This document shows, in pieces, positions 19,030 to 54,103 of a stretch of DNA of 64,000 bases. A program made the position numbers and the translations under genes. The DNA comes from Odiellus spinosus (Eukaryota > Arthropoda > Arachnida > Opiliones > Phalangiidae), in the NCBI GenBank assembly GCA_963920705.1, contig OY987233.1, positions 5,694,001-5,758,000 of the forward strand, given 5' to 3'. Below the pieces are notes generated by a model. That model ran no database searches. It was not told where the DNA came from and saw only the letters and a program-made list of their open reading frames with translations. The first letter of the stretch is position 1, and every line of letters starts with the position of its first letter.

Positions 19030-19715
19030 TAAAGAGAGCATCTTTATCGATTCCTTATCGTTTAAATAGGCCTAATCCACCAGTAAAAAAATTTGGAAAC
19101 AAATATTAAACATGAAATAAATTTAAAAAATATCCGGAAAATAGGCTTAGCTGGATTCACGGAGATCACCTGAACTCCCCTTAAAAGGGCCATCGATCAA
19201 TGTCATTGGTCGCTATGGGGAATGCAGGATCAGGATCTCCATGAATTCAGCTAAGCCTATTTTCAGTTTTGTTTGTAAATTCTTTTATTGGTGGATTAGG
19301 ATAATTTAAGCGATAATGAATCGATATAAATCACTTGTTGCAGAAGTAGATGAAACCCTCCTTTGAAGTCTACTACTCTAATGTTCGATATAGCGCTCCT
19401 CTCTGTATGGGTAAAATTCCCAATTTTACGAGATCGGAGGGGTCCTACTTCAAACCCCTGTCTACGGAAAATTGGAAATTCTCTCTCTCCACAAACGACG
19501 ACGTTTTTTTTTTCACGAACTTCAAGGCTGCTAGAGATATTCGCTCGACGAACTCCCGCTCCGAAAATATCTACCGTTAGGAGGCGTACGAATCGCGCTT
19601 TTTGAAACTAACCCATACAGAGAGGGGTAGACAAGACCAGGGAGTAATAGACTTCAAAGGAGGGTTTCATCTACTTCTGCTTGTTGTTAGGTTGCATTCT
19701 CGCTTAAATAGATTA
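19030..19715. mobile_element. Family F element carrying a nested insertion
   Basis: Outer element: left part TTTATCGATTCCTTATCG...GGCTTAGCTGGATTC, inverted right part CAGCTAAGCCTATTTTC...CGATAATGAATCGATA, then CACTTGTTG and, after the insertion, TTAGGTTGCATTCTC. Element E1 (19341-19679) interrupts its right terminal region. Confidence 0.75.
19341..19679. mobile_element. MITE E, copy 1, with 7-bp target duplication
   Basis: Perfect-looking terminal inverted repeats CAGAAGTAGATGAAACCCTC... of about 38 bp. Direct repeat CTTGTTG flanks both ends (19334-19340 and 19680-19686). The middle contains inverted CTCTCTGTATGGGT and GAAATTCTCTCTCTCCAC-type sequence. Long frames inside on both strands come from the palindromic structure. 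Confidence 0.9.
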
Positions 19716-20828
19716 AGATGAAGATAAAGGAAGGAGAGACTTGTCTGGCAGTTCTGGGCTCCACGTAGGTTACGACGTCATCAAATGTAAATTCAAAAGA
19801 GCCAATAGAAAATTTATAAAGTTTTGATAGACGTTAAGGGATGTTGATTATTCCATCGATATTTGTGTATGATTTGACCAAAAAGTTTAAAATGTTAAAT
19901 ATTAGGGAGTAACTTCATTTTCACAAAAGATCGATAATTATTTGTTACGAGACTATTTTTGATACCCGATTCTTTTAATACGCCTTTAACCATCTTGTTC
20001 TATCTTTTTTTCTTCCTGATAGGAAACTTCATCCATTTGGCGCCTCGTTCTATTGGCAGCTAGGCATTAACTGGGATTTTGTATTTTTTTTCTAAATCCC
20101 CGATTGATGGCTATGGCGATAACTACGTTCATCGGCACTCGATATTTATGTCGGATAGTAATTTCGAAAATTCCGTAAGTTTTTAAGCGGTATCATGCTT
20201 AGTAAAGACGCTAGGTCATTGGCTATATATTTTCTTTCACCCGAAATGGATCGAGGTCAGTACTCGTGTCCAGTCAAGTTCGTTACTGGTTAACTTATCC
20301 ATCCCTTGAAAGGTTTCTTGTTCGCTGATTGAGTTAATGATGTCTATTAATTTAAATTAATTTCCTTCTATTGGGCTCTTGATTATAATGTTAATTAAAA
20401 AGACCACATAAATTATTTTGGTTGTTTGTCCATTGGTCTTTGGTATCTATAGACCAATAGAAGAAGATATGGTTAATTAAGCAGACGATTTTGACAACCC
20501 AGGAAGGACTTGTTCAACAATTCTCTGAGTAACTGAGATGGACATTACTATTCATATAACATACAACTATGCATTGACGGAACCTTTTATAATATGATCC
20601 TCAAAGGCATTCAAAGAGTGAATGCCTCAGCGCGTGTCGCGGGGATTTTATTAAACCAAGGGCACAAGGGTATTTTCATTAGTCAGCGGCTTTATTTTTA
20701 ATTGAATGCCAAAATCCGAAGGTTTACATTTTTTGTACAATTCAAAGACACTATCTGAATGTTTTAACTACGCAAACATGTTTTATTTTTCGAAGTAGAA
20801 TCATCAAAGAATTCTCTTCACCCTCCCT

Positions 20829-20991
20829 TTAAAGGCCCTATCTGCTCTGAAACTTGCCCCTTTAAAATGCTCTTCCCTTACGCACGCAGCCTAGCTTTGA
20901 CTGTACAATTTAGTTTGTACAACGTCGTCTGCTAAGCTAGAAAATAAGGCGACTTTAAAGGGGATTTGAAAATCGCAGATAGTCCCTTTAA
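20829..20991. mobile_element. TTAA-flanked MITE A, copy 2
   Basis: TTAA-AGGCCCTATCTGC at the left; the inverted right end is GCAGATAGTCCCT-TTAA. 163 bp including both TTAA. Confidence 0.92.
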
Positions 20992-21867
20992 GGCTAAATT
21001 TTGCTCACTTCTTTTAAAATGATTAATGCATTTCTGGTCCCGATTGCTTGACGTGTTTTTGAGTTTTGTATATATAATAATATGCGAGCCTTAGGGCTTT
21101 CAAAGTTCAAGTTAATAAGTGATTTTATAATCAGGTAATGTTTCAAACGAGGAAGATACTAGTGTTTTTAAATAAGAACTAGTAATTATTTTCTCGATGA
21201 AAACTAATTAGTGTTTGTTCATGAAAGGATTTTGAATAGGAACCAGTGTTTGTACCCGAGGCGCTAATTTCGCGTGATGTTGAGTCTTCAGGGCTCAAAA
21301 AATTTACTCTAAAAATTCTACATTTCCGGATTCGTGTTTGTTTTTTCTTCTTAGTTACTTGGTTTATTTTATTTTGGAAAATAACAAATAGTAAATCATA
21401 TAATTTAATGAGTACTAGTTTTTCCTCGTCTTTACTCTAAAGAATAGCTTAGGTTTAGTAAAAAATTTAGGCCAAATCAGTTCAAGAGAAGTATTACACA
21501 CTTCTGAGCAATTGATTAAGTTCTAATACACTTCGGGCAAAAAATATATAACTGGACATATTATATATGTATAATTTATATCAACCAAAGAAAATTTTGG
21601 CCAAAAGATGGTTACGCATACTGCCAGCGCTCCGTAGCATACTTGCCATGCATAAATTTCTTAAGATTACCGTGTTGAGACAGGAATTGCAATAAAAATA
21701 TATCAATATAATTCGCGAATCGTGGGCTCTTTTAACGGAACTACCTGTGTTTTTATAGCCCCTTTAAAGTCGCCTTTTCTTGCTCAGCAGACGATATAAT
21801 TTAGAATATAATTTAGATATAATTTTCCTCTATTTAGTGTTTCAAATTTAGTTCTCATTATCACTAC

Positions 21868-21999
21868 CAGGGACGGAAATAAGCACAAGTCACTGGTCAT
21901 TTGTCCGATAAATTTTCCAAATGTCCGATAACTTTTGAATTTTAAAGGGGGGTTACTGGACATTTGCCCAATAAGAAAAATTTCTTATTTCCGTCCCTG
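21868..21999. mobile_element. hAT-like MITE, 132 bp, 8-bp target duplication
   Basis: Termini CAGGGACGGAAATAAG and CTTATTTCCGTCCCTG are perfect inverted repeats. The direct repeat ATCACTAC flanks both sides (21860-21867 and 22000-22007). An 8-bp duplication with CAGGG-type ends is the hAT pattern. The interior repeats CATTTGTCCGATAA-like segments. A diverged half copy lies near 54,750-54,805. Confidence 0.9.
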
Positions 22000-22408
22000 A
22001 TCACTACTCTTGCGTTTTATTACTCCATGCTCCTTTTACGATTGTTATATCGTCTGTTATGTCGTCTGCTTTCCTGAACATTCTCCGACACAAAGTTCTC
22101 GAAATAGTTAGTATCGACCTTGACTTTTTTTGTGGTTTGTTTTTAAACGTTAATGACTATGAATAACCGGTTATTATATCCGGCGGGTGATGTTAGAAGC
22201 ACGTGAATCTTAGCCATATCCTTAATGATGGTAATAGTTGAGTCGTAAACTACTCTAATAAAAATCAGTTTTATTGTTGTTGTAAGGAAGCCTTGGTAAT
22301 AGTAACGTATGGTGTTTTGACTTTTGAGTAGTTGATTAGCTACTGATTGAGTATAGAATATATGTTTGTTCATCATTGGAGCCCTATGCTTTAATTTTGA
22401 ATAAAATC

Positions 22409-25400
22409 ATGGATAAAGTAGATCATGGTCACGTTTCCCAGGGCCCTTACACTTCGAAACCTCGCTACGAACGCGACGAAAATCCTCTTGTCGGTCTTAG
22501 TTTCAGCGGTGATGATGAAACAGCGAGCGATACCATGAGTATAGAAACTCACGACACTGATACGAGCAATCTTTTACCGATAAATGACAATGATAGAAAA
22601 CAAGATGTGAAAGATGAGTAAGTTTTTAGTAAGAATAAGATTTTTTTAGTGGGGATTTAATTTTGTTGGTTTGTTATAATGTTCATTTTAGGTATAATTT
22701 TGTTTCAATAACATTCCTACTTTTGGGATTGTCAACATTAATGACATGGAGTTTTTTTATAACTGCCAATGATGTAGGTACAACTTAATTTTTCATTGAT
22801 GAACCAATGAAGATAAAAATTATCGTTATTTAGTATTGGATGTATAAATTTCGTAATACTTCGCTACCATATCCTCCTCCTGATCTCAAAGAAAAGACAT
22901 ACTTGCAGACAACATACGCAAGTTGGATATCGATTGCTAGCAACATTCCAGCTTTTTTTGCCTTACTCGTTAACGCAAAGTTGCTAAGGTACGATTTCCA
23001 TTCAAGTACCTGGTTGTCTAGAAATTATTCCACTTCATTTTAAATTTACTTTTGCAATTAAGGTTTTCTGAAGGTTATCGAAATGGAATTTCCCAAGTGA
23101 TAATAATTATTTTCTTCGGTGCAACTACTGTTCTCGTCTTTATTAACACTGATGATTGTAAGTTAGCGCTTAATGAATTATCTTGACTTCCATTTTCAGT
23201 TTAATGAAAAGGGATTTCATTTTTCTTTAAAGGGCAATATGAGTTTTTTGGATTTACGATGGCTACGATTGTTCTAATGAATAGTAAGTCTAATTTTTTA
23301 CTTTTTCTTAGATTTAAAGTAAAAACCGTGGTCTTTAAGCATACATTGTAGATCTTTAAAGAGTGATTACCTGAAATGAAGTATTTTTCTTGTTTCCTTA
23401 CAAAATTCTGCAGCCTTTATTTAATTACGTAAAAAATATTTGGGTTGGGAAATATTTCACGTAATAATCTTCCTTTGAAAGTGGCTTTCATACTCAGATT
23501 CCTGGTTTAATTTTACCCCAAAATAACTGATTTAAGTGATCTGATTATATTTATAAAGTTGCCGGTGCCATATTTCAAGCGGGTCTTGTTGGTTTAACAG
23601 CTATGTTTCCCAAAAAATACATGCACACCATGATTACTGGTCAAGTTAGTTATTTCTTAAAACTCTTAAGTGTTTTACATGAATCATGATAAGTTGTGTC
23701 AAGAAAGGATGGAAGTTACACTGTGAATCCTTAAGGATGTCGGCCAGAGTGTAAGGTTTTCTATTTTAAACTATGGGAGTTGCTTGCAAACGTATTGAAA
23801 CATCATTTAGTCTCATCTATCATTAATAACGTTCTTGTCCTGATCCATCTTTCCTTCCCAGAGTCTCTCAAATTATAACTCGGCTCGTATTGGCCAAGGC
23901 TTAGCTAAAAATAACTAGATTGAGATAAATAAGAAGCTAGCTTCTATACTAGCAACCAATCATGGAAATCTGTTAAAGGGAGAATGAAAGGCCGAAACAA
24001 CCTATTTTTAATCGATTAAGAATGCTAAAGTAATGAGAAAACAATAATATAACTCACCAAAAATATTTCGTTATTTTATAATCAATTTCCAAAGGTCCGA
24101 AACTTGCAGATGCTAAGCCTTGGCTGCCTATCTCAGCGAACCAGTGCTGGGCAATTCGCGAGTGACTTTGTACAGCCAAGCCTGGTCACTCGCGAAAAAG
24201 TTCGCGAATTTGCCCACCTCTGCAGCGAACTAGGCGAGCACGAGCCATATTTTTTTAATATTCCCGTCTGATCTAGTCACCAATCACGAGCAAGTACGCG
24301 TATTGTTAAAATATGCGTACTCGCTCGTGATTGGCGACAAGAACAGCCGCGAATATTAAAAAAAATACAGGTCATGCTAGCCTACTTCACCGAGCTAGGC
24401 AAACTAGGCTTAGCATCGGAACTTTGGAAATTGATTATAAAATAACGAAATATTTTTGGTGAGTTATATTATTGTTTTTCTCATTATTTTAGCATTCTTA
24501 ATCGATTAAAAATAGGTTGTTTCGGCCATTCATTCTCCCTTTAATGGTGAGATAGTTGACTGTTTCCTCATGTCACCTAGTAAAATTATCATATAATACC
24601 TGTGTGAAACCACCTGGAATGACCCCAGTGTAAGTTCTATCCTTTATTGTTACATAAATCCGAAACTATAAGTCTATATCGCTAAAAGTTAAGAAACAGT
24701 TGTCGTTTTTAGGGATTGGCTGGGGTATTTGCGGCTATAGCTCAGATATTGGCATTATTGGAGGGAGAATCTCCAGTTCATACAGCCATGACGTTCTTTT
24801 TCAGCGCCCTAGCTGGTCTAATAGTTGCATTTATCGGGTATTGTGCCGTACGCAAAACTGTGAGTTTATTTATTATATTAAAGGGGTAATGAAGTGGTAA
24901 ATGACGATTTTAGTTCTTGCTCAGGCAGCGAGATTGGCGCAAAATCAGTTTGACCAAAATCGAGTAAGGTTCTTGCATGTTTACTTTAAAATCAGACCAC
25001 TTCATTATCCCGTTTAATGTATAAGTAAAACATATTGGGATAAAATTATTAAAAAACCGAAATTTCGATCTTTTGTAGCGTGTTTTTAAATTTTATACGT
25101 CTTTAGATAGTGGTAAGTAAAGATTATTTCATATTCGCGTCATAAATTGAGTTCGTGGTTAAATTTATTTCCATCGTTTTCACTGCGAAATCTAGAAGGA
25201 TTCGAACCATTAAATTCTGGAACGCATCCATCTTTATCAGGCAGCATAAACTTATCCGAAAGTCTACCCCAAATTAGTTCATTTAAATTTACGAAACAGG
25301 TATAAATACTAAATTAAAATCAATATTTACGCGAATGGAGGAACAAAATTTTCATTTTTTAGATTTGGACTTGCGCTTTATCCATATTTATTACATTTGT

Positions 25401-27157
25401 GGTAACTATGAGCGTATTTCCAGGACTAACTGTTTTGGTCGTGAGCCAGAATGCCTCGAATGGCTCTATATGGACTGGTAAATGATATTTGTTTTTATAC
25501 GCATGCATGTTAATTGGAACAGAACCTCAAATGTTGGTTTGAGAAACTCTTGGTGGTAATTAAGCCAATATAAAAATGATTATGTTTATGATTTAAGTCT
25601 GTACGTAGTTTTTATATTTTCATTATTTAGTTCTGTTTGAAACTATGAGCAGAGTAGCAGTGTGTAGTTAGTTGTTGTTCGTTACTTCTGTTAAAACTAT
25701 GAACATAGTAGCAGAGTGTAGTTGTTGTTCGTTACTTCTGTTAGAAACTATGAACATAGTAGCAGAGTGTGGTTAGTTCTCTTTAGTTATTTACTTGTTT
25801 GAAACTATGAACATTGTAGCAGAGTGTGGTTAGTTCTCTTTAGTTATTTATGTTAGAAACTCTGAACATAGGAGCAAAGTGTGGTTAGTTGTTATTTAGT
25901 TCTGTTAGAAACTATGAACATAATAGTAGAATGTGGCAATAGTTGTTAGTTTTGAAAGAAACTACGAACATGGTAGCAGAGTGTAGTTTGTTTTGGTCTG
26001 AAAGCTATTCGATTCAGTTAGAAACTTACTTGCATTTTATTGGATTATAGTTTAAGTTTAAATCAAGTTTAAGTAGCAAATTATAAAGTTGTCCAAAACT
26101 AGGGAATCATGGTATTAGAGCGTAGTTTCCATATTCTCTCATTAAGCCTAAATTAAACACACAACCTGACTCTATTCGTAGTATTTGGGCTTTGTCAAAG
26201 ATTCTACTTTGCTCTAGATCAATTAGCCAAGGCCTGAATCGAGTCCAGTTGTATGTCTACTTTCAAATGTATCTCTCTCAATGAGTGATTAAAATAGAAA
26301 AAAAAAAAACTAAAGCTTCCTTCATTAATTTTCAGGTCGTTTGTTTCTTCCGGTTGCTTGTTTTTTCCTTTATGGCGTGGGTGATTTTTGCGGCCGCTTA
26401 GCTTGTGGATTCCTCCCTCTCTCTTCCATCGCCGTGAATTCCAAGTTTCCTAATCGACATAGAGGCCGTAGCGATTATCTTTTCCTACTCTTGAGCATTT
26501 TGAGGATTCTTCTCATTCCTGCTTTCATGTTGTGCAACGCTCACCCGAGGAGCGGACATCTCCCTATCTTATTCCCCCAAGACGAAGTGTTCATCGCTTT
26601 GGTAGCCATTCTTGGCTTAACCAATGGAATCTGTTTCTGCGCTCCAATGATTATCGCCCCTGTGTAAGTTTAGCCTAATTGGTATTGGTACAATATCAGA
26701 CATCATTTCAATTTAATTGGGATGTTATATATTAGTCAGGGTTGCCAGAGGCCAGGAAAAGTCTGGGAATTTGAAAAAGTTTGTCCCAAAGGTCAGGGAA
26801 AAGTCGGAGCCAACCCAAGAGGTCTGGGGAAAAAAAATCGGTGAAAAGTTCAGGGAATAAAAAATGAGGCTAAGAGGTCTGGGAAAAGATAAAAATAGCC
26901 AAAAAGGTCAGGGAAACGGGAAAATTGGCCTCTAAGTAAGGGAAATCAGGGAATTTAAAAAAGATGACTAGTGCCAGATAATCTCCTGCTCTTATCTTTT
27001 TGATTTATCAGCGATTCACCTTTAAATCGTAATCAATTTCTTTAGATTGTTGCCGATGGAGTATCGAGAAAGAGCTGGAAGTGTCTTAACAATATGTCTG
27101 CTAGCGGGATTATGCGTCGGTTCGTTACTTTCCTTCCCCTTGGTGAACTTCTTATGA
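22409..27157 (+). CDS. Equilibrative nucleoside transporter (SLC29/ENT family), 12 exons
   Basis: Exons: 22409-22617, 22692-22773, 22834-22988, 23063-23157, 23233-23283, 23559-23644, 24713-24859, 25079-25112, 25196-25299, 25363-25477, 26336-26663, 27046-27157. All have GT-AG borders and matching phases and give 505 aa. ENT proteins move nucleosides and nucleobases by facilitated diffusion across plasma or endomembranes. The sequence shows an acidic soluble N-terminus of about 70 residues, then TM1 with the ENT-like stretch FITANDYWMYKFRN, a hydrophilic central loop (exons 8-9), and the family signature as FFLYGVGDFCGR in TM8. The last exon ends in a hydrophobic helix closing at LVNFL. The start is the ATG at 22409; the frame is open upstream to 22376, but without an earlier ATG. 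The introns carry foldback and tandem repeats. The next gene converges on it. Family assignment is firm; substrate and ENT1/2/3 orthology are not. Confidence 0.9.
23705..23972. repeat. Dispersed repeat M, copy 1 (left portion)
   Basis: Shares AAGTTACACTG, ATCTTTCCTTCC, CAAATTATAACTCGGCTCG and AAAATAACTAGATTGAGA with 30350-30545. It continues past the foldback element as GGTGAGATAGTTGACTG, matching 30,741 onward. Lies in ENT intron 6. Confidence 0.7.
23973..24544. mobile_element. Foldback element, 572 bp, ~135-bp arms, TTAA-flanked (ENT intron 6)
   Basis: Starts TTAA-AGGGAGAATGAAAGG and ends CATTCATTCTCCCT-TTAA. The outer arms are close to perfect complements (AATCGATTAAGAATGCTAAA against its inverse near 24,493; ACCAAAAATATTTCGTTATT against its inverse near 24,455). 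A second inner palindrome surrounds CACGAGCAAGTACGCGTATT. No coding capacity. Confidence 0.92.
24878..25017. mobile_element. Small TTAA-flanked inverted-repeat element, 140 bp
   Basis: TTAA-AGGGGTAATGAAGTGGT at the left, ACCACTTCATTATCCCG-TTTAA at the right. It lies only 19 bases past ENT exon 7. Its ends resemble those of the 572-bp foldback element (AGGGAGAATGAA). Confidence 0.8.
25630..26010. repeat. Degenerate tandem repeat, ~55-65-bp units, ENT intron 10
   Basis: Six or seven imperfect units share GAAACTATGAACATAGTAGC and AGAGTGTGGTTAGTT, with variable spacing and point changes. Confidence 0.85.
26737..26960. repeat. CAGGGAAAAGTC-type repeat J, copy 1 (ENT intron 11)
   Basis: Starts CAGGGTTGCCAGAGGCCAGG and consists of repeated GGTCAGGGAAAAGTCGG-like units. 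The far terminal inverted repeat is not clear. Confidence 0.75.
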
Positions 27158-28554
27158 ACGAGGTATTTCGTAATATTGCATGATTAACGAAGAAAAAAAA
27201 TAATCACCACGAGTTGTATGATAATTTAATGCATTTTAGTTTTTAATTAATGTTTACAAGTATTTTTTTATATTTAATTTACACTCTTCAGCGTATAGCG
27301 CTCAGAAGTCTGATTTTATAATTTGAATTATAGAAAGTATCGCTTTTTTATTGATTTAAATTGAGCTAGCTGTGAGCCCCTTACCTTTAAAAGTTAATGT
27401 TATTGAGTATCATGAGCTGATAAGAGTCAAAACGATAATGGGGTATCGTTTGTTTAACAGTGTTATACAATATCTATAAGCTTATATCAAAAAACGTCTT
27501 TACGTATCAATGTGGTACGTACGCGGATATATCAAAAGTTACTTAAAGTACTTGTTATAATTACTTTTTGAGAGAAGACTGATGTCGCCATATGTTTTAA
27601 ACATGTTGTTCATACGTACAAAATATATAAAAAGCATTTAATTGTGTAATTGTAATTACTTATTTTGAAAAAGTAGGCTTAAGTTTGCTAGCATTCAATA
27701 GAGTTTGAGAAATTGAACGAAGAACGCGTACGGTGTAGCTTCAACTTTAATATAACCCATCTTATCACATGACCAATGAGTTGTTGAAGGCTTTTCATGA
27801 TTGAAAGTACTTATTTCGAAAAATTGGCCTGAGTTTGTTAGCTTTAATTCAATTGAAAGTGAGATTGAGCGAAGAACACGTATGGTATAGCTATAACTTT
27901 AATAGAAAAAATCTTGTCACGTGACGAATTGTAGAAGTTGATACATTCTTCATTCATCTTTCAAATTAGTTTTGTTTCATAGGCGAAGTTTTAAACGTTT
28001 TCCTAGGTGGTGTGATTGAATTTATGGTAAGTTGTCCACAGATGAAGACTAGCGTATTCTATACGAGACAATCATTGCGATTTAAAAGTATCCTTTTTGA
28101 AATTTGATAATCATACAATTTATTTTAGCTAGAAAATATTTTTGTTTAAATTCCTCTATTACATTTTTATTTGTTATTGAATGTTCTCATAATCCTATAT
28201 TACATTTTGCTGTGTAAATTTTTAGGTTAGTCTTCAGAGAAAGATTCCTAAGTAATTTATTGACCTCTGTTAAGGCTCAAATAAATTTAGGGTGAGTATG
28301 ATAATCATATGGTAGTTTTGTACGAGGAAACTTTCACTTTTAAAGAGAGTATAAAAGGCAGCTAAGGCCCAAGATGAATGGTTCAGCTTGAGATTGCTGC
28401 CACTAGGTCTAACAAATATAGTCTTGGTTAGGAGACAATACATAGCGCGAGTTAGCAGACGATTTTTCAGTTATATTTATATTCCTTTTAAATTAACCCA
28501 ACTAGTATATGACTAGTATTTCAAATACACTATCTATTTTTGGTATTCTATACG
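27158..28554. other. Convergent intergenic region, ENT and ionotropic receptor 3' ends
   Basis: No gene supported. Contains two similar blocks (27,650-27,790 and 27,800-27,930: TTATTTCGAAAAA-type, GAACGCGTACGGTGTAGCT against GAACACGTATGGTATAGCT), a local duplication. Confidence 0.55.
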
Positions 28555-31500: not shown

Positions 31501-31558
31501 GAGTTATATTTAGATTCTTGGTGAGTTTTTTCTCAGCTTGCTGCGATAAGTAGGGCAT
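28555..31558 (-). CDS. Ionotropic receptor (iGluR/IR family), short N-terminus, 7 exons
   Basis: Exons in transcription order: 31558-31329, 31261-31168, 31092-30934, 30234-30093, 29879-29665, 29607-29327, 28891-28555. Phases agree and give 485 aa. It begins almost directly with the S1 ligand-binding half (YPLFQIPPYTT, then KLGPSLMKSILDYL), followed by GIWSGVIGAISSKRADVGMLPFG and QRHTAISFSTPFYY, where the Arg aligned with the iGluR ligand Arg is kept. TM1 is WYLVVFVLFVTSGIYYVL. The pore and next TM follow (FISFWWYFRIILLTTYSG), then S2 and TM4 (GVFTLLACGISISLIAFSCEIIL). No amino-terminal domain or signal peptide is seen. In arthropods such receptors are ligand-gated cation channels, often chemosensory. 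An upstream exon could be missing: a small open stretch beginning MTNTKKAIDV ends in a GT donor near 31,797, but it does not join in frame. The 57-bp intron at 29664-29608 is the least certain junction. Ligand unknown. Confidence 0.85.
30350..30800. repeat. Dispersed repeat M, copy 2
   Basis: Related to the sequence on both sides of 23973-24544. Its CCGTTAATGGTGAGATGG (around 30,737) shows the TTAA target without the foldback insertion. A third, shorter relative is near 53,550-53,630. Lies in the receptor gene's third intron. Confidence 0.7.
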
Positions 31559-33470: not shown

Positions 33471-33633
33471 TTAAAGGCCCTATCTGCTCTGAAACTAGCC
33501 CCTTAAAAATGCTCTTCCCTTATGCACGCAGCCTAGCTTTAACTGTACAATTTGTTTTGTACAACGTCATCAGCTAAGCTAGAAAAGAAGGCGACTTTAA
33601 AGAGGATTTGAAAATCGCAGATAGACCCTTTAA
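33471..33633. mobile_element. TTAA-flanked MITE A, copy 3
   Basis: TTAA-AGGCCCTATCTGC ... GCAGATAGACCCT-TTAA, with the same interior as copies 2, 4 and 5. Confidence 0.92.
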
Positions 33634-34016
33634 AGTATAACGTCTTAAAACTGGAATGGTGGAAAATTCCCATTATTCTTCTCATTAAAATCATTTACGG
33701 TTAACCCAATGTAATTTTAGATTATGGCGAGTCTAGTGCCTTGGTTGAAGTAAAGACGTCATAACTGAAACTAAATGACATTTTCAAATCTCATTTAGTT
33801 TTACTGTATTATGACGTCTCTGTGCCACAATTCAAAGTTGAAAAGTGTCCATATCACGGCCTTCAATAATTGCAAAGGCCTCCATTAAATAGAGTATACA
33901 TGAAAATTAAGCAGTACCCTACAAGATTATGTATCATTGGTCTTAAATTAACGGCATCTATATTGAATGACCACCTCCCCCCTCCAAATTGAATCTTCAC
34001 TGATAGCAGAAGCCGA

Positions 34017-34343
34017 TGAAACCCTCCTTTGAAGTCTATTACTCCCGGGTCTTGTCTACCCCTCTCTGTATGGGTTATTCTCAAAAGGCGCGATTCGTAC
34101 GCCTCCTAACGGTAGATGGTTTTGGAGCAGGAGCTCGTCGAGCGATTATCTCTAGCAGCCTTGGAGTTCGTCCAAAGAACGTCGTCGTTTGTGGAGAGAG
34201 AGAATTTCCAATTTTCCGTAGACAGGGGGGATGAAGTAGGACCCCTTCTAACTCGTAAAATTGTGAATTTTACCCATACAGAGAGGAGCGCTATATGGAA
34301 CATTGGAGTAGTAGACTTCAAAGGAGGGTTTCATCGGCTTCTG
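34017..34343. mobile_element. MITE E, copy 2
   Basis: Opposite orientation to copy 1; termini CAGAAGCCGATGAAACCCTC and its complement. Flanks CTGATAG (34010-34016) and CTAATAG (34344-34350) match at 6 of 7 positions, as expected for an older 7-bp duplication. Lies just past the TopBP1 3' end. Confidence 0.88.
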
Positions 34344-34531
34344 CTAATAGTTTACACTAATGACTAGGTCAATTTTGATTGGCTATAGAACTACTAATTT
34401 ATTAGAGGTTTGTATGAACCCTGTTTATTAATCAAAGTTAGTCTACTAAAAGATTGAAGTATAGGAGGGAAGTAGTAGAACTTACATTAATTAAAAAAAA
34501 AAAAAAAACACATTAAAGCTTTTAAAAAAAA

Positions 34532-37600: not shown

Positions 37601-39321
37601 AACATTCGTCGGGTGTTCACCGTCTTGCGCAGAAATTGTGGTGGTGTTAACGGATGTATTTGGGTCGATAAAACTGATTTTGATTGCTGAGGCACACATC
37701 GTTTCGCTAATTTCATTCTTTTTAGTTGGAGTTGAAGTTTGAAGTTTTGGAGATTTTCCAGATGGTTCGAGTAGAAAAGGTTCTTCACTCACGACATTTC
37801 CTTGTCTGACACATTCTTCGTACCATTCTGGTTTCACGCATTTGATACCCCATTCCCAAGCGGCTTGAAATTTTGCTCCAGACGGTTCAGGTGTGATTAA
37901 GTATGAAACTACAGATTTTTTAAGTCCTCCGCTATAATGCCCACCATTTTCATTGATAAACTTGGCCATCTCCTTCCTTTTAACCGACTCGATATTTGAA
38001 ACTGCGATAGATAAACGGTAAAATAGTGGCATCTTATATCTTTCATAAATTGGATCATTGGCTAGCTTTGGATTGATACTGTTATCTTCCATCATTGCGG
38101 CTATCCATGATGGTAACATTATTGGAATCTTGTTTTTTACGGCAACGTGAAACTTCTCACTTCCGATAGTTTCTAAGAAATGGGGATAAAATGATTTAAG
38201 ATTAAAAACAACAACAAACAAAAATTAAAAACTATGTAACAACCATTACATCAAAAGGTTTAACGTTTAATTCTTTCGAACTCCCTCCCAATATTCTAAC
38301 TAATCATAGAGCAATATTCAGATAGCCAATAGAATAGGTCTGCCCCTCTAATTTCAATGGACACAACTGGCCCTGAAAAACCATTATATTTAGAAATTAG
38401 AGAACACAGTTTTGAACTTATAATATTAAGAGTATTAGTGTCCAAAATTACCAAGTACTCAATATTTGGTTTGTATAGTCTAGAATCTAGTACTTGAAAA
38501 CAAAAAATACTTTGCTCTATGAAAAGCTTAGAATCGCCCTTTTCTTCTTGATAGATCAGTAACTTAAGTTTCAATAAAGCCATTTATGCCTGATTTTGGA
38601 GGCTGTTACTGTTTTGAACCAGACACAGAGGACAGAAAGGTTATGATGGTACAATGACTATGGATACTCTAACCAACTAGAAATTTAGGGTACTTCAAGG
38701 TCGCAGTTTGTCATGATGGAAAGCATGGTTGTAATATATTAAAAAATACAGCGGAGATCTATTTTTGCTTGGAGGTTTTACTGTGGAAAAGGTCGATACT
38801 GTCCGTATCTACTTTTTTCACAAAAATTGGAAATCACCATATTTTTTTTTTTTTTTTTTTTTTTCCCCATATGACAATTGACAACCAATTGCTGCAGTTA
38901 GAAGAGCCATTTTACAGAAAAAGTTGGTTCCATATACTTTCCTCCATGGTTTTGTTAAAAAGAAAATTTACAGTATCATTTAAAACGCAAAAATGAGAAT
39001 TTAAGGAAAATAGACACACCTTTACCAAGAAGGATCAGATAAGGAGAGGAAATGTGGGGACGGCGCGGTTCCTACTGCGTCGGCTTAAACTCCCACTCTG
39101 GGAGAACGGGGGTAGAGACGTTTCGTGGTAAAATGTTGTCACGTGGGTAAAACGAATCCTTTATGAGACGCGCTAGCTAGCGACCACGTGACAACAGTTT
39201 ACCTCGAGAATTTCCTATCCCCCCTTTCCACCCGAGTGGGAGGTTGGCTCTTCTCTCTCTAACTCAACGCAGCCCCACATTTCCTCTCCTTATCTGATCC
39301 TTCTTGCCTTTACAATTTAGG

Positions 39322-39356
<35 letters not shown>

Positions 39357-45284: not shown

Positions 45285-46549
45285 ACCCGTAAATGCAAAA
45301 AGCATAAAACAAACACAGTTTCCATAGCAATGACTATAACTATATATATAAATATAAAAAATACCTAAATTTAATAATTAAGTCTTAAACATTTCATTAA
45401 AATAATAATTAATGACCTCTATTACATAAATAACCACTCGTCCCCACTCACGGTCACTTTTCCGAGATTGTAAATGCCGTGAACTTTTGTGAAATGATTC
45501 TGAATTAAGAGTGTTAGGCTTAGATGTATAAACAAAAAGGATATTTAGGTTTAAGCGTATGTTCTTTCATTTTTGTTTCACCAATGTTTTTTTATTTACC
45601 TTTTTCTAAGCCAAGGCTTAGCTAACTATAGCTGTAAATTGGGTGATACACTTGTCTATCTCTCGTCTGCTACTTTTTCTAAGCCAAGGCTTAGCAAACT
45701 ATTGTAAGTTTTCTGAGGGAATATCTCTCCTCTGCTACTTGATAATTTTGTTTTAAGCCTTGGCAATGGCATAGAGAATAAGATGGATCTAGCGATGGTA
45801 CCATAACTTTGTATTTATTTAGTCAAACACTTATTTTATTAAACCTTACGAAATTACTATTAGAATTGATTCTCGTATCTTTTTCCTAACCCCTTTATTG
45901 AATTGTTAAAAATGCGTCCATAAAATGTCAAATTTAAAAAATTAACTCTGAGGGTTTTCAATTTTATGTCCATTCCTCAGAGTCTGTGATGTAACTTTAG
46001 ACTGGTTCTAAAATTGTCTTTAATGGCGTTTAAATATAAGCAATAGCTATTTTTCTGTTCTAAAAGACTCGTTGACAAGTTATTTTTTACAGGCAACAAT
46101 TGTATAAAGTTGTGACTGACTTGTCAATCATTATCTCTCTAAGGACATTGCATTGTTGGAGCTTATACAACGTAACTTCACTCTTTTTTTTATCTAAAGT
46201 CTCCTCAACCCAATATCTTGGTTATAATCTTCTGGTTTTAGGCAGTGACCCACAGGGTGGCGCAGCCATAGTTTTAGTTTTCAACTTAAAACAAATCATT
46301 CTGTATGGATTACAAGTGGCGCTCTTTTATGAAAATAGGTTGTAATTTGTTGGGGTCATCCAAAATGTTTATTCAGAGTTTTGGGAATTATTTCATTCAG
46401 GGTTAGCTCCAAGTAAATGCAAGAGATGATGAATTGGGTAACATAATAGGATTATAGTTTTCATTCAGGAGGAAAAAATTCCATCACCGCAATGTTCCCA
46501 GTTTCTTGATGAACAGATTTTAATGCAGTAAAGCGACAGGTCAGCATAA
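45285..46549. other. TPD52 3' flank and gene-free stretch
   Basis: Presumed TPD52 3' untranslated region (AT-rich ATATATATAAATATAAAAAA just past the stop). Positions 45,600-45,780 contain a doubled motif (TTTCTAAGCCAAGGCTTAGC). No further gene supported. Confidence 0.5.
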
Positions 46550-46712
46550 TTAAAGGCCTTATCTGCTCTGAAACTTGCCCATTTAAAAGGCTCTTCTCTT
46601 ACGCACGCAGCCTAGCTTTGGCTGTACAATTTGTTTTGTACAACGTCGTCTTCTAAGCTAGAAAAGAAGGCGACTTTAAAGGTTATTTGAAAATCGCAGA
46701 TAGTCCCTTTAA
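46550..46712. mobile_element. TTAA-flanked MITE A, copy 5
   Basis: TTAA-AGGCCTTATCTGC ... GCAGATAGTCCCT-TTAA. A diverged partial relative (ACGTCGTCTGCTAAG) follows at 46,720-46,840. Confidence 0.92.
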
Positions 46713-47348
46713 CTAGATAAAATTATGGACATTGCACACAGCTTAACTTAGACTGAACAATGTACTTATGGTCATTTATCTTAACCACGTCGTCTGCTAA
46801 GTAATGAATGGCAACGATTTTAAAATGGCATATGGCCCTTTAATTCTCTTCATCCTGAAGCCCTCATATCCTTTACTGCTTTAGGATTTGATAATGTTTA
46901 ATATATTTTGTTGTACTAATATTATTAATTTATCGAATTTATTCCTTAAGTAACCAGCATGATTATAAGTGAATCATTTCTATTCCAGGCCAATAGTGTT
47001 ATTACTTTTTGCTTTATGCTATACGTCGTCTGCTAAAACTTTTAGGGTTTGTTTTTGTTGTTCTTGTCTCATCGCAGTACGCGTTGGAAGTTTTATTAAT
47101 TTTTTAATGTTTTAGGCATTATTAGTTATATTTAATATTTATTTGTACAAAAAGAAATGAAACAATTCATTATGCATTCAAGTCGTCTATGATATGATGA
47201 AGCCAACAAAATTGTATGGAGTAATTCCGTAAAGTGCATATTACTCACAAGTTTGATGCTTTAAAATGTTGAAAATCTTGTCCTCGTAGTATAGGTATAA
47301 TCGTTATGAAGCCGTGACCTATTGAATTTATAGTTTTTGCTAGTTATA

Positions 47349-50300
47349 ATGAGTACTACCAGTCGTACAGTTATTGCTGTACGTAATTCAGCAGAAGAGT
47401 TACTAAACACTAGTCAAGATTTCTTGGAAGACCCTAATCGTGTTGAAATAAGAATTATGAACAAAGAAAATGGATTCTATGGTAACTTAAATAAATCAAT
47501 TGTTTTATATATGTGATTTAAATTTTTTATGGCACAGCATTTATTCCCGCCCGACATTTCCTCTCATTCATGGTTTTTTGGGCACTCTTCCTTGTTTACT
47601 CGTTACGAGTTAATCTGAGTGTGGCCATCGTCGCGATGGCCAAGCAAAGCAACAATAGTGATACCCCGGTCAATGATGAGTGTCCCGCTTCAAATCAGTC
47701 AACTTATAATTTTACCAATAATGTCTACGAGGGAACGGGTGAATTTGATTGGGACGAGAGGACAAAAGGAATGATTTTAGGTACTTTCTTTATCCAAAAA
47801 CCATGCAAAACATGTTTGTGAGAGGATCTGGGAAGTTTGACTCACAACTCTTCTTTTAGGGGCATTTTTCTACGGTTATGTTATAACTCAGATTCCTGGT
47901 GGTCGTTTGGCTGAATTATTTGGAGGAAAGTGGCTTCTAGGGGGAGGTGTTCTTTGTACTTCCGTGTTCACCCTGATATTGCCATTTGCTGCAAGATGGA
48001 ATTTTTACGCTTTGATGGTGTCAAGAGTTATCGCAGGCATTGGAGAAGTTAGTAATTACGCTTTATAATTTAAAATTCTATTAAGTAATGTAAATATATC
48101 TTAAACACCCATATTAGCCACCACTCTATCCAATAGCCCCTTATCTCTTGCCAATAGCCCCCTTATCTCTTGCCAATAGCCCCCTTATCTCTTGCCAATA
48201 GCCCCCTTATCTCTTGCCAATAGCCCCCTTATCTCTTGCCAATAGCCCCCTTATCTCTTGCCAATAGCCCCCTTATCTCTTGCCAATAGCCCCCTTATCT
48301 CTTGCCAATAGCCCCCTTATCTCTTGCCAATAGCCCCCTTATCTCTTGCCAATAGCCCCCTTATCTCTTGCCAATAGCCCCCTTATCTCTTGCAATAGCC
48401 CCCTTATCTCTTGCCAATAGCCCCCTTATCTCTTGCCAATAGCCCCCTTATCTCTTGCCAATAGCCCCCTTATCTCTTGCCAATAGCCCCCTTATCTCTT
48501 GCCAATAGCCCCCTTATCTCTTGCCAATAGCCCCCTTATCTCTTGCCAATAGCCCCCTTATCTCTTGCCAATAGCCCCCTTATCTCTTGCCAATAGCCCC
48601 CTTATCTCTTGCCAATAGCCCCCTTACCTCTTGCCAATAGCCCCCTTACCTCTTGCCAATAGCCCCCTTACCTCTTGCCAATAGCCCCCTTACCTCTTGC
48701 CAATAGCCCCCTTAGCTCTTGCCAATAGCCCCCTTAGCTCTTGCCAATAGCCCCCTTAGCTCTTGCCAATAGCCCCCTTAGCTCTTGCCAATAGCCCCCT
48801 TAGCTCTTGCCAATAGCCCCCTTATCTCTTGCCAATAGCCCCTTATATCTTGCCAATAGCCCCCTTATCTCTTGCCAATAGCCCCCTTATCTCTTGCCAA
48901 TAGCCCCCTTATCTCTTGCCAATAGCCCCCTTATCTCTTGCCAATAGCCCCCTTATCTCTTGCCAATAGCCCCCTTATCTCTTGCCAATAGCCCCCTTAT
49001 CTCTTGCCAATAGCCCCCTTATCTCTTGCCAATAGCCCCCTTATCTCTTGCCAATAGCCCCCTTATCTCTTGCCAATAGCCCCCTTATCTCTTGCCAATA
49101 GCCCCCTTATCTCTTGCCAATAGCCCCCTTATCTCTTGCCAATAGCCCCCTTATCTCTTGCCAATAGCCCCCTTATCTCTTGCCAATAGCCCCCTTATCT
49201 CTTGCCAATAGCCCCCTTATCTCTTGCCAATAGCCCCCTTATCTCTTGCCAATAGCCCCTTATCTCTTGCCAATAGCCCCTTATCTCTTGCCAATAGCCC
49301 CTTATCTCTTGCCAATAGCCCCTTATCTCTTGCCAATAGCCCCTTATCTCTTGCCAATAGCCCCTTATCTCTTGCCAATAGCCCCTTATCTCTTGCCAAT
49401 AGCCCCTTATCTCTTGCCAATAGCCCCTTATCTCTTGCCAATAGCCCCTTATCTCTTGCCAATAGCCCCTTATCTCTTGCCAATAGCCCCTTATCTCTTG
49501 CCAATAGCCCCTTATCTCTTGCCAATAGCCCCTTATCTCTTGCCAATAGCCCCTTGTCTCTTGCCAATAGCTCCTTGTCTCTTGCCAATAGCTCCTTGTC
49601 TCTTGCCAATAGCTCCTTGTCTCTTGCCAATAGCTCCTTGTCTCTTGCCAATAGCTCCTTGTCTCTTGCCAATAGCTCCTTGTCTCTTGCCAATAGCCCC
49701 TTATCTCTTGCCAATAGCCCCTTATCTCTTGCCAAGAAGGATCAGATAAGGAGAGGAAAAGTGGGAACGGCGCGGCTCCTACTGCGTCGGCCTAAACTCC
49801 CACTCTGGGAGAACGGGGGACAGACGGGGGTAGAGAGGCTTCGTGGTAAATTGTTGTCACGTGGGTAAAACGAATCCTTTATGAGACGCGCTAGCTAGCG
49901 ACCACGTGACAACAGTTTACCTCGAGAATTTCCTATCCCCCCTTTCCACCCGAGTGGGAGGTTGGCTCTTCTCTCTCTAACTCAACGCAGCCCCACTTTT
50001 CCTCTCCTTATCTGATCCTTCTTGCTCTTGCCAATAGCCCGTTATCTCTTGCCAATAGCCCGTTATCTCTTGCCAATAGCCCGTTATCTCTTGCCAATAG
50101 CCCGTTATCTCTTGCCAATAGCCCCTTAACTCTTCCCAATAGTTTATAGTTGTAATATTCAAAGATAGCTTAACCATTTTTTAGGGTGTAACTTATCCCG
50201 CGTACTACGCAATATTTTCAAAATGGATTCCGAAAGACGAGTACAGTTTACAGTTAGCAGTTAGCGGTTGCGGTGCTCAGATTGGGACAGTGGTGACGTT

Positions 50301-53300
50301 GCCCATCGCCGCTCTCTTATGCGATATTAAATACGACGGTGGCTGGCCACTCGTTTTTTACGTTTTTGGTAATTAAATGCATCTAGTTTTTCGAAATTTT
50401 GTCCTTACTCAAAAGTGACTTAAGATTGTTTTACCATACAGGCGCCTTAGGATGTTTTTGGTTTATATTATGGACAATATTTGTAACAAACACACCAGAA
50501 GACCACCCACGCATTACACTTAAGGAACTTAGGCATATTCAGGAAAACAGACAAACTTCTATTCGTCAACAAGTTAGATTTTTGATAATTTAACATTTTA
50601 GCAGTGGTGTAGCGACAAATCTTGGGTTCCCCCCTGCAAGATATGGTCATGTGACCCCTTATAAATACTAGTACAGTAACACCTCGTTATAGCGAGATTC
50701 TGGAGGAGATGAGCCCATTTTTTTGTTATAGTTTAAGTTGTTAGGCCTTGGCTTTGAAGACAACATGCTCATGGATTTGACGCGTTTATCTCTGACATAG
50801 GTTATTCTATGAGCGAGTTCCGACAGCTTACACCAAACATACAGTTAACGCCAAAAGAAACTGGGACTACGGTCAGTTTCTTCTGGCATTGATTGTACTA
50901 CGTAGGAGCGTGACTCAGTCGCTTTCAAAAAACAAAAGCCAAAATGAAAATGGGCCCTTCATCACGGGGTTTACTGACCCAAAGCTACGCCACTAACTTT
51001 TGTGTAATTTTTGATGATATTGAAGTGTTAAACCTGATTATAGCGCAACGCTCTTCCTTGGAAAATGATTCTTACTTCCATCCCATTATGGGCCCTTTCT
51101 GTAGAAAAGTTTTGCAACTCTTGGGTCTTTTACACCCTTTTAACAGAGCTGCCAAACTACATGCAAACCATTTTGCATTTCAATATTAACCAGGTACCAA
51201 ATTATTTAAATCTTTAAAGTAGACAGGTAACCTGACTCGATTTGGGCCAAGCTCACTTACTCACAAGAAATTTAAAAAATCCCCGATCCTCTTTTTACAT
51301 ACCCATGACATTGGTTTTACTATTCATTCCAATATGTTCCCATAGAATATGAAAGAAATCAGTTTGCATCTCAATGATGAAAAATCTAATGTGGTCAAGA
51401 ATGGTCCAAATTCGAAGATTTCAATAGAATTTGCCCTTTGAAATTAACCTGAATTCAACAAAGTGGTCCACTTTTTGGGATTTTTTTCAATCTCTAAAGA
51501 TAAAATTCGCGAGCTTGGCGCGAGATCAATTTGTTGAATACCAAATCGAGTCGGTTTTAAAAGGAGAATGAAGCCTGCCAAAAACTTGCCAAGGTTTTAT
51601 TTCCCTTCTAATTAAAATCTCTTTCATCCTTCGCTAATTAGAATGCTTGGCAAAATTCCATTATTTACTTGGTTCAAGCTATTATCGGAGTAATTGCGGG
51701 TGTTTCCGCCGATTACATTAGGTCGTTGAATTACTTTTCAGTTACTACTATCAGAAAATCCTTCCAATTAATAGGTAAATATAATTTAAAGAGATATTAT
51801 TAGCTGAAATTAATTTGTTTTAGTTTTTTCTGATATTAAAACATGTCCCCTTGAATTTTTTCACAATTTTGGAATGATCTCTAAAAGTTCCCCTATATCG
51901 CGAAACTATCTCAATAATCTCTATTGTAGAACATCACGGGAAAGATCCTGGCCTCTGATTGGTCAGTAAGTCACTTCATTGAAAAAAAAAAAAACTGTTG
52001 CTAAGCCTAAAATTGTTTCAAAAATTACTTTCTTTATGAAATAATTGATGAAAAACTGTGAAAAAAATCCAGAGTTTATATTAATAACAACTTAAACGCT
52101 AGAAAATTTTCAGTCAATAACCTTCCTTTAAGACTTTATCATTCTGTTGTTAAAATTATACCAGATTGTTCTAAATTGAATATTTTAATCTATTTGGTTA
52201 GCCTGTCTCGGAACGGGTGTTTGTATAGCCTCCGTGACTCTAGTTGGTTGCGAGAAACTATCGATATTTTTACTTCTCGTGGCTTCCATGGCCTTAATGG
52301 GTTTCAGTGCGGGTGGAGAAAGTCCTATTGCTCTCGACATGGCTCCGAATTACGCTGGTTAGTATTTTTAAACCTATACATCTCATTTTTATTTTACTAC
52401 GTGTTACGTCCTAGCAACAATCTTCTACAAATTATTCATTTTAATTTAAAATGGTAGACAATACACATTCGTAATTGCGTATAGTTACCTTTTACGTAAA
52501 GAGATTGGTTCTATTAGAGCTACCTTCAGTTTCTAACACTCTTAAAGTGTGGCACGCAGCTAAATCTAAAAGAGCGAGGTTTTATGCTCAAAAGGTAGAG
52601 CAGAAAAAAAATCAATATAGAATATGTATAGTTCTATTACATTGTAAGCTCCGTGAAATTTGTCGCCGCACAAAAATGTATATATATCCCTAGATTTTTC
52701 GCGCGTTTTTTGCAAAGTTCAATCAAGATTGGCTCGCACGTAAATTCAGGTTACTCAGAGAGTAGGTTTATATTACTGATCAATGGGCATATTGAAAGCT
52801 ACCCCTCTTACCTCTAGAAGTTAGTTAAATTATTAACAAAGGATGTCACGCGACCTTTTGAGTAGACATTTTTCTACACAGAAATCTCAATAGTATCCTA
52901 CTTACGTTTAGGGACTGTGTTTGGAATTTCCAACACCATAAGCAACATGGCTGGTATATTTGCACCAATGGTGACAGGTCTTATCACCAATAACAATGTA
53001 AGCTCAAAAATAATTTGCGATGTTAATACAATCTTGGATTAATAAAGATATATATCAGAATCTTTAATAAGGAAGTCTGATTCAATTACAGCACGTGACA
53101 AAATTTACTCCCTACATATAATTTTTGTGATAATACCTTGAATCACTGTTACCCTTTGAGTGCGAGCAGAAATAGATGAACCGAAATTATCAACGAGAGC
53201 TTAGATTGGGAAATGCATTTTATTTGGAGTGAATGGGGAGGGTAAGCACTGGGGGAATGGGCTTCCTCGGCCTCAAGGAAATACCGAGGAGGATCTTGGG

Positions 53301-54103
53301 AAACTGATCGCCCCACGTAGCGACGGCTGCAAACAAGGCAGGTGGCGCATTCAACGTTTCTCGGCTAGGCGAAATTCCGAGGGGGAGGGGGCTATAACTG
53401 TCGTCTAAGAGAGGGGAAACGGAGAACTTGCCTGTGGCGTTAGAGGAATAGCTCGTTGATAATTTCGGTTCATCTATTTCTGGTGCGAGTGATGCTTAAT
53501 TCTTTCCATAATTTATTTAAAAGGGTACACTAGTAATCGAATGCAATAGGCACAATATTAGCAACCAATCAGGGAAACATGTCCGTGGCCAGACGGTTTT
53601 ATCACGTCAGCTTGTAATATGAAAATACCCACCCCATTTTCTAAAATCACCATGTTCTTGGTACATGTGATATATCCATCTATTATTAGTCCAAGATACA
53701 ATCCACCATATTCCTGCCGCCCTTTTTTTTTTTTTTTTTTTGCCATGTTTACTAAAAAAACACGATTTTTGTGTTTATTTGGCTAAATTGTTTTTAACTT
53801 GTGGCAGACGACGATAGAGATTGTTCTTAATTTGCTAAGCCTTGCCAAATAGCGTTGTGAATAAGATTTTAATCTCTTAATTACAACCGACAGGATACGA
53901 TGGCTGGTTGGGGTCAAGTATTTTACATATCTGCGCTCTTTGAAGCGATTGGCGCCATTGTTTTTATAATATTTGTTTCCGCCGAGCCTCTGCCCTGGGC
54001 TGTTAGTCCCCAATACGTTCTTCTCGAGACAGAAGAAAATTTAAATGACCCTGCATTTTCGGGTGTAATAAATACGGATCGTGTCGGAGATTCAGTCTCG
54101 TAA
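47349..54103 (+). CDS. Sialin-like anion transporter (SLC17, major facilitator superfamily), 10 exons
   Basis: Exons: 47349-47481, 47538-47780, 47860-48047, 50185-50368, 50442-50572, 51044-51193, 51642-51774, 52202-52357, 52912-52997, 53894-54103; phases agree and give 537 aa. SLC17 proteins carry organic anions (sialic acid, glutamate, phosphate) across lysosomal, vesicular or plasma membranes. Hallmarks: SLRVNLSVAIVAM in TM1; a luminal loop with NNSD, NQST and NFT glycosylation sites; [58 protein letters not shown] around TM4; and CNSWVFYTLLTELPNYM in the second half. The last TM is followed by a short acidic tail. Intron 3 (48048-50184) is almost entirely minisatellite. The element at 53167-53482 sits in intron 9. 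Family is firm; substrate cannot be read from sequence. Confidence 0.93.
48112..50136. repeat. Minisatellite, 21/22-bp unit, ~80 copies, filling SLC17 intron 3
   Basis: Unit TTATCTCTTGCCAATAGCCCCC (22 bp) for roughly the first 1.1 kb, then a 21-bp form with four C. Variant blocks are clustered (TTACCTC, TTAGCTC, TTGTCTC...AGCTCC), and the last five units carry CCCG. Element D2 interrupts it near the right end. Long open frames on both strands arise because the 21-bp unit keeps frame and lacks stops; they are not genes. Confidence 0.97.
49733..50024. mobile_element. MITE D, copy 2, inserted in the minisatellite
   Basis: 292 bp, same termini as 39026-39306. Duplicated CTCTTGC at 49726-49732 and 50025-50031 is part of the minisatellite unit, so the unoccupied target is known from dozens of neighbouring units. 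Confidence 0.95.
53167..53482. mobile_element. MITE G with 7-bp target duplication (SLC17 intron 9)
   Basis: Ends CAGAAATAGATGAACCGAAA and TTTCGGTTCATCTATTTCTG, terminal inverted repeats of about 35 bp. GTGCGAG is duplicated at 53160-53166 and 53483-53489. The termini resemble MITE E (CAGAAGTAGATGAAACC). Confidence 0.92.

What the first reader, a model, noticed from the sequence alone, without database searches (positions are those of the whole stretch)
19334..53489. Three MITE families sharing a 7-bp target duplication and CA...TG ends
Elements D (39026-39306, 49733-50024), E (19341-19679, 34017-34343) and G (53167-53482) have different interiors. All begin CA(A/G)AA-like, end in the complement, and are flanked by 7-bp direct repeats: CCTTTAC, CTCTTGC, CTTGTTG, CTGATAG/CTAATAG (6 of 7) and GTGCGAG. 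Seven-base duplications are uncommon among animal DNA transposons (hAT and P give mainly 8, Mariner TA, piggyBac TTAA). E and G also share CAGAARTAGATGAAMC. One inference is a single trans-acting transposase class serving several deletion-derivative families. The Dada group (6-7 bp) is one candidate to test.
Basis: partly seen in the sequence, partly recalled or inferred. Interest (0 to 1): 0.75.

Follow-up and report, generated by a model that had tools for sequence, protein, structure and literature searches.

The report
P-element-type miniature transposons, 7-bp duplications
Three families of short non-coding jumping elements in an invertebrate genome are most likely moved by P-element-type transposases, and places where two of them jumped out keep a small scar of the kind expected from that enzyme.

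Summary
D, E and G have long inverted ends with CA…TG tips; four of five window copies have exact 7-bp duplications, E2 has 6 of 7 (E2 starts at 34007, not 34017). In the window's genome (443 Mb) I read 68 distinct two-ended copies: 61 exact 7-bp TSDs, 5 with one mismatch, 2 none. Dada is not met: published Dada elements lack TIRs and sit in small-RNA genes. The P superfamily fits best. Its members 1360 and Galileo make 7-bp TSDs, and D's TSDs fit the 1360 motif GTTNAAC. The genome gave 150 P-transposase RNase-H matches; three delimited autonomous P elements make 7-bp TSDs, one with CA…TG ends. D has 88 short two-tip remnants (56 seen) of at most 35 bp that keep no more than about 15-16 nt of an end; of 13 with flanks read, 9 keep the exact TSD and 3 differ by one base. 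That is the scar expected from P transposase's long staggered cut. G has three. Missing: no transposase gene with D, E or G termini was found, and E remnants were not properly tested. New P-type MITE families, unusually well documented by excision scars.

The parts
39026..39306 (+). MITE D1, 281 bp, TIR about 37 bp, TSD CCTTTAC
39019..39025 (.). left TSD of D1
39307..39313 (.). right TSD of D1
49733..50024 (+). MITE D2, 292 bp, inserted in a 21-22 bp minisatellite array, TSD CTCTTGC
49726..49732 (.). left TSD of D2
50025..50031 (.). right TSD of D2
19341..19679 (+). MITE E1, 339 bp, TIR about 44 bp, TSD CTTGTTG
19334..19340 (.). left TSD of E1
19680..19686 (.). right TSD of E1
34007..34343 (-). 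MITE E2, 337 bp, inverted relative to E1, TIR about 44 bp
34000..34006 (.). left TSD of E2 (CTGATAG)
34344..34350 (.). right TSD of E2 (CTAATAG, 6 of 7)
53167..53482 (+). MITE G, 316 bp, TIR about 36 bp, TSD GTGCGAG
53160..53166 (.). left TSD of G
53483..53489 (.). right TSD of G

Best explanation
D, E and G are non-autonomous cut-and-paste elements (MITEs) mobilised in trans by P-superfamily (THAP / RNase-H / GTP-binding-domain) transposases of the 7-bp-TSD kind known from 1360 and Galileo. The transposase cuts one strand at the tip of the element and the other about 15-17 nt inside it, and inserts at a loosely palindromic site 7 bp apart, giving the 7-bp TSD. When a copy leaves, the donor site keeps both TSD copies and up to about 15-16 nt of each tip, joined by short homology or filler. 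Shown here: TSD length, target tendency, intact-looking P elements with 7-bp TSDs in the same genome, and remnants of D and G of the expected form. Inferred: that a P transposase moves D, E and G, which one, and that the 15-16 nt ceiling marks the inner cut.
For: (1) 61 of 68 distinct copies have exact 7-bp TSDs, 5 more with one mismatch, 2 none, no other length. (2) 53 of 61 exact TSDs have Y at position 2 and R at position 6, against 14 of 57 control 7-mers 20 bp upstream; by family D 29/29, E 9/13, G 15/19. The commonest letters of 28 D TSDs read GTTTAAC (columns 1, 3, 4, 5 and 7 are weak: 10-12 of 28), which fits the published 1360 motif GTTNAAC; 1360 has 7 bp in 274 of 279 insertions (PMC3276498, passages); Galileo: GTANTAC, mostly 7 bp (PMC4168063, passages). 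(3) PF21787 (P-transposase RNase H): 150 scored matches of 386 candidates, all 150 over cut-off. (4) Autonomous P elements here make 7-bp TSDs: 'o', two copies identical over 3,777 bp, TSDs TTTGAAG and ATTATAC, 794-aa protein with THAP, RNase-H and GTP-binding domains, sole PDB hit P transposase 6p5a at E 3e-21; 'e', 5,670 bp, CATAGACTAAG...CTTAGTCTATG, TSDs GTCTGTC and ATATTAT, 856-aa THAP transposase; 'r', one copy, TSD GTAGAAT, 732-aa transposase. (5) D remnants: with 13-nt anchors 13 places, all listed, 28-35 bp though 42 was allowed, reversed-pattern control 0; with 9-nt anchors 88 places, control 0, 50 listed, 18-35 bp (19 of 18 bp, 20 of 23 bp). Together 56 of 88 were seen as letters. 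Flanks of the 13: 9 exact 7-bp TSDs, 3 with one mismatch, 1 none abutting. (6) G remnants: 3 places, control 0; one with flanks read has an exact 7-bp TSD. (7) P transposase's 17-nt stagger is described as distinguishing it from other characterised cut-and-paste transposons (PMC7776569, passages).
Against: No transposase gene bounded by D, E or G termini was found; the delimited autonomous P elements have other tips (CGG..., CATAGAC..., CTTGG...), so not every P element here ends CA...TG. Of 6 examined P element groups 3 could be delimited, all with 7-bp TSDs; two gave no ends, and one transposase copy (C45:572500-578945) sits between 13-bp ends with an 8-bp duplication, unresolved. D's target has T at -3 (20 of 28) and A at +3 (19 of 28), unlike the ANAGT...ACTNT tendency of P and 1360 as I align it. 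E deviates most at TSD positions 2/6, and its common asymmetric ends were not covered by the remnant search. Most remnants are joined at short palindromic homologies, which hairpin deletion could also give. The ceiling of about 15-16 nt is slightly below Drosophila's 17; remnants longer than 42 bp were not searched and 32 of the 88 were not seen as letters.
Confidence: 0.87

Rival explanations
1. Dada transposases mobilise the three families.
For: Dada TSDs are 6-7 bp (PMC3706591, passages).
Against: Published Dada elements have no terminal inverted repeats, only sub-terminal ones, and insert in snRNA or tRNA genes. D, E and G have 36-44 bp TIRs. Rfam at gathering threshold found nothing in the window, and D2 lies in a minisatellite. 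No Dada transposase search was made.
Confidence: 0.02
2. hAT-type MITEs with an unusual 7-bp TSD.
For: hAT elements also prefer palindromic targets (hobo GTNCGNAC, PMC3276498), and CA...TG tips are common in hAT (recalled).
Against: hobo makes 8 bp in 1,196 of 1,198 insertions. None of 68 copies here has 8 bp. hAT excision alters bases near the TSD and does not leave about 15 nt of both tips (recalled).
Confidence: 0.05
3. The short D remnants are not excision scars but deletions by replication slippage across the TIR hairpin.
For: 39 of the 50 listed remnants are of the 18-bp or 23-bp kind, joined at short homology in and around GATC, as slippage could also give.
Against: The TIR is about 37 bp, yet none of the 56 remnants seen keeps more than about 15-16 nt of an end although 21+21 was allowed. 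Several carry filler that copies the tip (CTTCTTG, CAAG, CTTG), which suits end joining after a break.
Confidence: 0.1
4. D, E and G are served by transposases of different superfamilies and share the 7-bp TSD by convergence.
For: D's TIR shares no long run with E/G, and no autonomous partner was found for any.
Against: Same TSD length and target tendency in all three; E1 and G share a 16-bp tip (3,313 genome matches, reversed control 1); D and G both have P-like remnants.
Confidence: 0.05

Closest known systems
1360 / Hoppel (P superfamily, Drosophila)
   Same: 7-bp TSD; motif GTTNAAC, which D's commonest TSD letters fit.
   Different: Different host; no shared TIR tested; target flank differs (T at -3 here; ANAGT there as I align it).
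Galileo (P superfamily, Drosophila)
   Same: Mostly 7-bp TSD, palindromic target GTANTAC (PMC4168063, passages).
   Different: Unusually long foldback-like TIRs (abstract start); D, E and G have 36-44 bp TIRs.
P-MITEs of Anopheles gambiae
   Same: MITEs that share TIRs and TSD length with P elements of the same genome (PMC1562414, passages).
   Different: 8-bp TSD; there the partner P subfamilies were identified, here not.
Pdre elements / THAP9 of zebrafish
   Same: CA...TG tips; internally deleted P-like elements; Drosophila transposase excises Pdre2 although termini differ (PMC10983969, preprint, passages).
   Different: 13-bp TIR and 8-bp TSD.
Dada
   Same: 6-7 bp TSD.
   Different: No TIRs; strict small-RNA-gene targets.

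Membership tests
P superfamily | TSD of 7 or 8 bp | tested here: met
   61 of 68 copies exact 7 bp, 5 with one mismatch, 2 none
P superfamily | Palindromic GT...AC-like target in the TSD | tested here: met
   Y2/R6 in 53 of 61 (D 29/29, E 9/13, G 15/19), control 14 of 57; flank motif at -3/+3 differs from P and 1360
P superfamily | Long staggered cleavage (17 nt in Drosophila P), so that a donor site can keep tip sequence plus both TSDs | tested here: met
   Tested only through remnants. D: 88 places, 56 seen, at most 35 bp, 13 flanks read. G: 3 places, one flank read. Asymmetric E ends not tested; no cleavage was measured
P superfamily | P transposase encoded between the same termini (autonomous partner) | tested here: inconclusive
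   Many P transposases in the genome, but the three elements delimited have other TIRs; the patterns gave no partner; search not exhaustive
P superfamily | Terminal inverted repeats (31 bp in P, 13 bp in Pdre2) | tested here: met
   36-44 bp
Dada | No terminal inverted repeats, only sub-terminal ones | tested here: not met
   TIRs start at the TSD
Dada | Insertion in small RNA genes | tested here: not met
   No Rfam match in the window; varied TSDs in 61 copies
Dada | Dada transposase | not tested
   no Dada protein query was made
hAT | 8-bp TSD | tested here: not met
   0 of 68 copies

The most novel reading that the evidence does not exclude
This genome holds a natural, sequence-readable archive of P-type excision: about ninety scars of two MITE families with different tips, which place the inner cut of a non-Drosophila P transposase at about 15-16 nt together with a 7-bp target spacing; one transposase lineage would be mobilising families whose tips share little more than CA...TG.
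Probability: 0.35. Interest if true: 0.62.

Novelty: new member of a known kind. Interest (0 to 1): 0.48.

Why it matters
P elements are best known from Drosophila, where the 17-nt staggered cut was defined biochemically. Here another animal carries many P transposase genes, some in intact-looking elements, high-copy MITEs with 7-bp TSDs, and a set of excision-like scars. That could allow the cut geometry and repair outcomes of P-type transposition to be estimated from genome sequence alone, and suggests a simple diagnostic (TSDs plus at most about 16 nt of each tip) for assigning orphan MITEs to the P superfamily.

Tried and rejected
Dada: rejected on TIRs and targets. Window transposase: Pfam on 81 of the 96 stop-to-stop ORFs of at least 75 aa (96 counted; minisatellite and some overlapping frames left out) found BRCT/TopBP1, MFS, nucleoside/sugar transporter, innexin and ligand-gated-channel matches, no transposase; shorter ORFs were not scanned. 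Partner search by excluding MITE bases: (D tip, 21 matches, mostly D variants with changed inner bases; four places followed: C5 and C6 are D copies carrying inserts, C113 showed no second tip within 5 kb, C45:578641-578931 is a D copy near a P transposase gene). (E/G tip plus A or T, 59 matches; 8 places read: four whole G copies, two partial G-like, one remnant, one probably chance). None of the 100 listed E/G tips on C1 pointed to a partner by position, but one search lists 150 of 386 candidates. DNA searches of the genome with E and G did not complete, so no total copy numbers are given. Among 30 D copies only L028 has no TSD; among 17 E copies only L072:5144-5480.

Literature: searches; only passages were read of PMC3706591, PMC10045372, PMC1562414, PMC4168063, PMC4079207, PMC3276498, PMC10983969 and PMC7776569; nothing is claimed to be absent from print.

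Full report
Observation. All five elements are real. Boundaries and TSDs were recomputed: D1 39026-39306, D2 49733-50024, E1 19341-19679, G 53167-53482 with exact 7-bp duplications, and E2 34007-34343 with 6 of 7. TIRs are 36-44 bp. A window-wide structural scan found exactly the four exact cases at 7 bp and none at 7 bp in ten block shuffles; it also listed rows at 4, 6, 8, 10 and 11 bp, several of them nested readings of palindromes.

Genome context. The window is G000:C11:5694001-5758000 of a 443-Mb assembly. Coding matches in the window (TopBP1-type BRCT, MFS, innexin, ligand-gated channel) fit an invertebrate animal; the species is not known to me. D had 955 first-look candidates; the 40 scored were full length at 99-100% identity (these are the best 40, so biased to young copies). 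The E/G tip CAGAARTAGATGAAMC occurs 3,313 times on both strands; the reversed pattern once. E copies compared are about 90-97% identical to E1, and nine G copies compared are about 83-98% identical to G.

TSD length and target. Of 68 distinct two-ended copies (D 30, E 17, G 21) 61 have an exact 7-bp TSD, 5 have one mismatch, 2 none. Dropped before the count: L001 (the window's own copy), L097 (flanks identical to L096), two D copies split by inserts (TSDs ATCCTGC and TCCATAG), and six fetched places without two tips at MITE distance. The sample is not random. Position 2 is a pyrimidine and position 6 a purine in 53 of 61 exact TSDs, against 14 of 57 control 7-mers. For D the commonest letters of 28 TSDs read GTTTAAC; positions 2 (T 22, C 6) and 6 (A 17, G 11) carry the signal, the other columns are weak. 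This fits GTTNAAC, published for 1360, a P-superfamily element with 7-bp TSDs in 274 of 279 insertions, while the Drosophila P element has 8 and hAT hobo 8 (PMC3276498, passages). Galileo makes mostly 7 bp with GTANTAC (PMC4168063, passages). Outside the TSD, D's T at -3 and A at +3 do not match the published P/1360 flanks as I align them.

P elements in the same genome. PF21787, the RNase-H part of P/THAP9 transposases, gave 150 scored matches from 386 candidates, all 150 above cut-off. I examined six groups. Element 'o' (3,777 bp, two identical copies, 31-bp TIR starting CGGTGCC) has TSDs TTTGAAG and ATTATAC and a 794-aa protein with THAP, RNase-H and GTP-binding insertion domains; its only PDB match at E 0.01 is P transposase 6p5a. 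Element 'e' (5,670 bp, two copies 99.95% identical, about 38-bp TIR starting CATAGACTAAG) has TSDs GTCTGTC and ATATTAT and an 856-aa THAP transposase. Element 'r' (5,318 bp, one copy, TIR CTTGGAGG...) has TSD GTAGAAT and a 732-aa transposase in which no THAP domain was found at E 0.01. Two groups (L105, L106) showed no ends; in the sixth (C45/C275) the C45 copy lies between 13-bp ends with an 8-bp repeat and stays unresolved. So P transposition with 7-bp TSDs, in one case with CA...TG ends, exists here, but not all P elements have been shown to do so.

Excision remnants. One locus (L110) showed only 35 bp between two copies of ATAATAT: 16 nt of one G-type tip and 13 of the other with a little filler. 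Drosophila P transposase cuts the second strand 17 nt inside the element, described as distinguishing it from other characterised cut-and-paste transposons (PMC7776569, passages), so a donor site could keep both TSDs plus up to 17 nt of each tip. I tested this. D tips of at least 13 nt facing each other within 42 bp: 13 places, all listed, 28-35 bp, reversed control 0. Their flanks: 9 exact 7-bp TSDs, 3 with one mismatch, 1 with none abutting (L127, where TTTAAC lies 8 nt left of the remnant and GTTTAAC directly right). With 9-nt anchors: 88 places, control 0; of the 50 listed, 19 are 18 bp, 20 are 23 bp, 4 are 28 bp, 2 are 30 bp, and one each 26, 27, 29, 31 and 35 bp (counted by hand). With six more, 56 of 88 were seen. 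None of these keeps more than about 15-16 nt of an end, though 21 per end was allowed. The 18-bp kind is joined at the palindrome GATC; some others carry filler copied from the tip (CTTCTTG, CAAG, CTTG). G tips: 3 places, control 0, 13-16 nt kept; flanks were read for one. The pattern would have found E only when both ends are of the TA type; none was found, and E's common asymmetric form was not covered. Deletion across a hairpin is the main rival for these remnants; the ceiling and the filler speak against it, the short palindromic joints do not.

Mechanism. The simplest account is cut-and-paste by P-superfamily transposase acting in trans on MITEs: 7-bp target spacing, long internal stagger, end-joining repair at the donor. 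Steps shown: TSD, target tendency, presence of P elements with the same TSD length, remnants of D and G. Steps inferred: the identity of the transposase(s), and equality of the remnant ceiling with the cut position. Precedent for one transposase acting on differing tips: Drosophila transposase excises zebrafish Pdre2 (PMC10983969, preprint, passages).

Assessment. Dada membership is not met: these elements have TIRs and do not sit in small-RNA genes. The three families work like P-type MITEs; formal membership still needs an autonomous partner with the same termini. Novelty is moderate: new members of a known kind, with an unusually clear record of apparent excision.

Noticed in passing
window 23973-24544: A roughly 570-bp inverted-repeat element (arms of 69 and 63 nt at 97-98%), another MITE or foldback-like element.
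   Followed up: no
window 21868-21999: A 132-bp element with 18-bp inverted ends starting CAGGGACGG and an exact 8-bp repeat ATCACTAC, hAT-like in form.
   Followed up: no
window 48130-49735 and 50025-50142: A 1.6-kb minisatellite (22-bp unit, 74 copies, 99% match) interrupted by the D2 insertion.
   Followed up: no
L017 and L028: L028, the D copy without TSD, shares its 12 left flanking bases with the otherwise different D insertion site L017; unexplained, perhaps an aberrant transposition carrying donor flank.
   Followed up: partly
L079+L042+L080 (C45:572500-578945): Ends CAGCGTTGCCAGA with an 8-bp duplication GCGCTATT enclose a P transposase and a D copy inserted at the right tip: a hAT-like element with a nested P, or a P element with 8-bp TSD.
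   Followed up: partly
L072: Five E copies within 6.5 kb; one of them (5144-5480) lacks a TSD.
   Followed up: no
L087+L084 (C6:7002695-7007938): A D copy with TSD TCCATAG that carries a retrotransposon-like insert with long open frames.
   Followed up: no
L096 and L097: Two G insertions 0.87 Mb apart on C1 with identical 20-bp flanks and TSD GTTGTAC: probably a duplicated stretch.
   Followed up: partly
L059 2510 onward and D tips: The TIR of autonomous element 'o' contains GATCCTTCT, the reverse complement of AGAAGGATC in the D tip; possibly chance.
   Followed up: no
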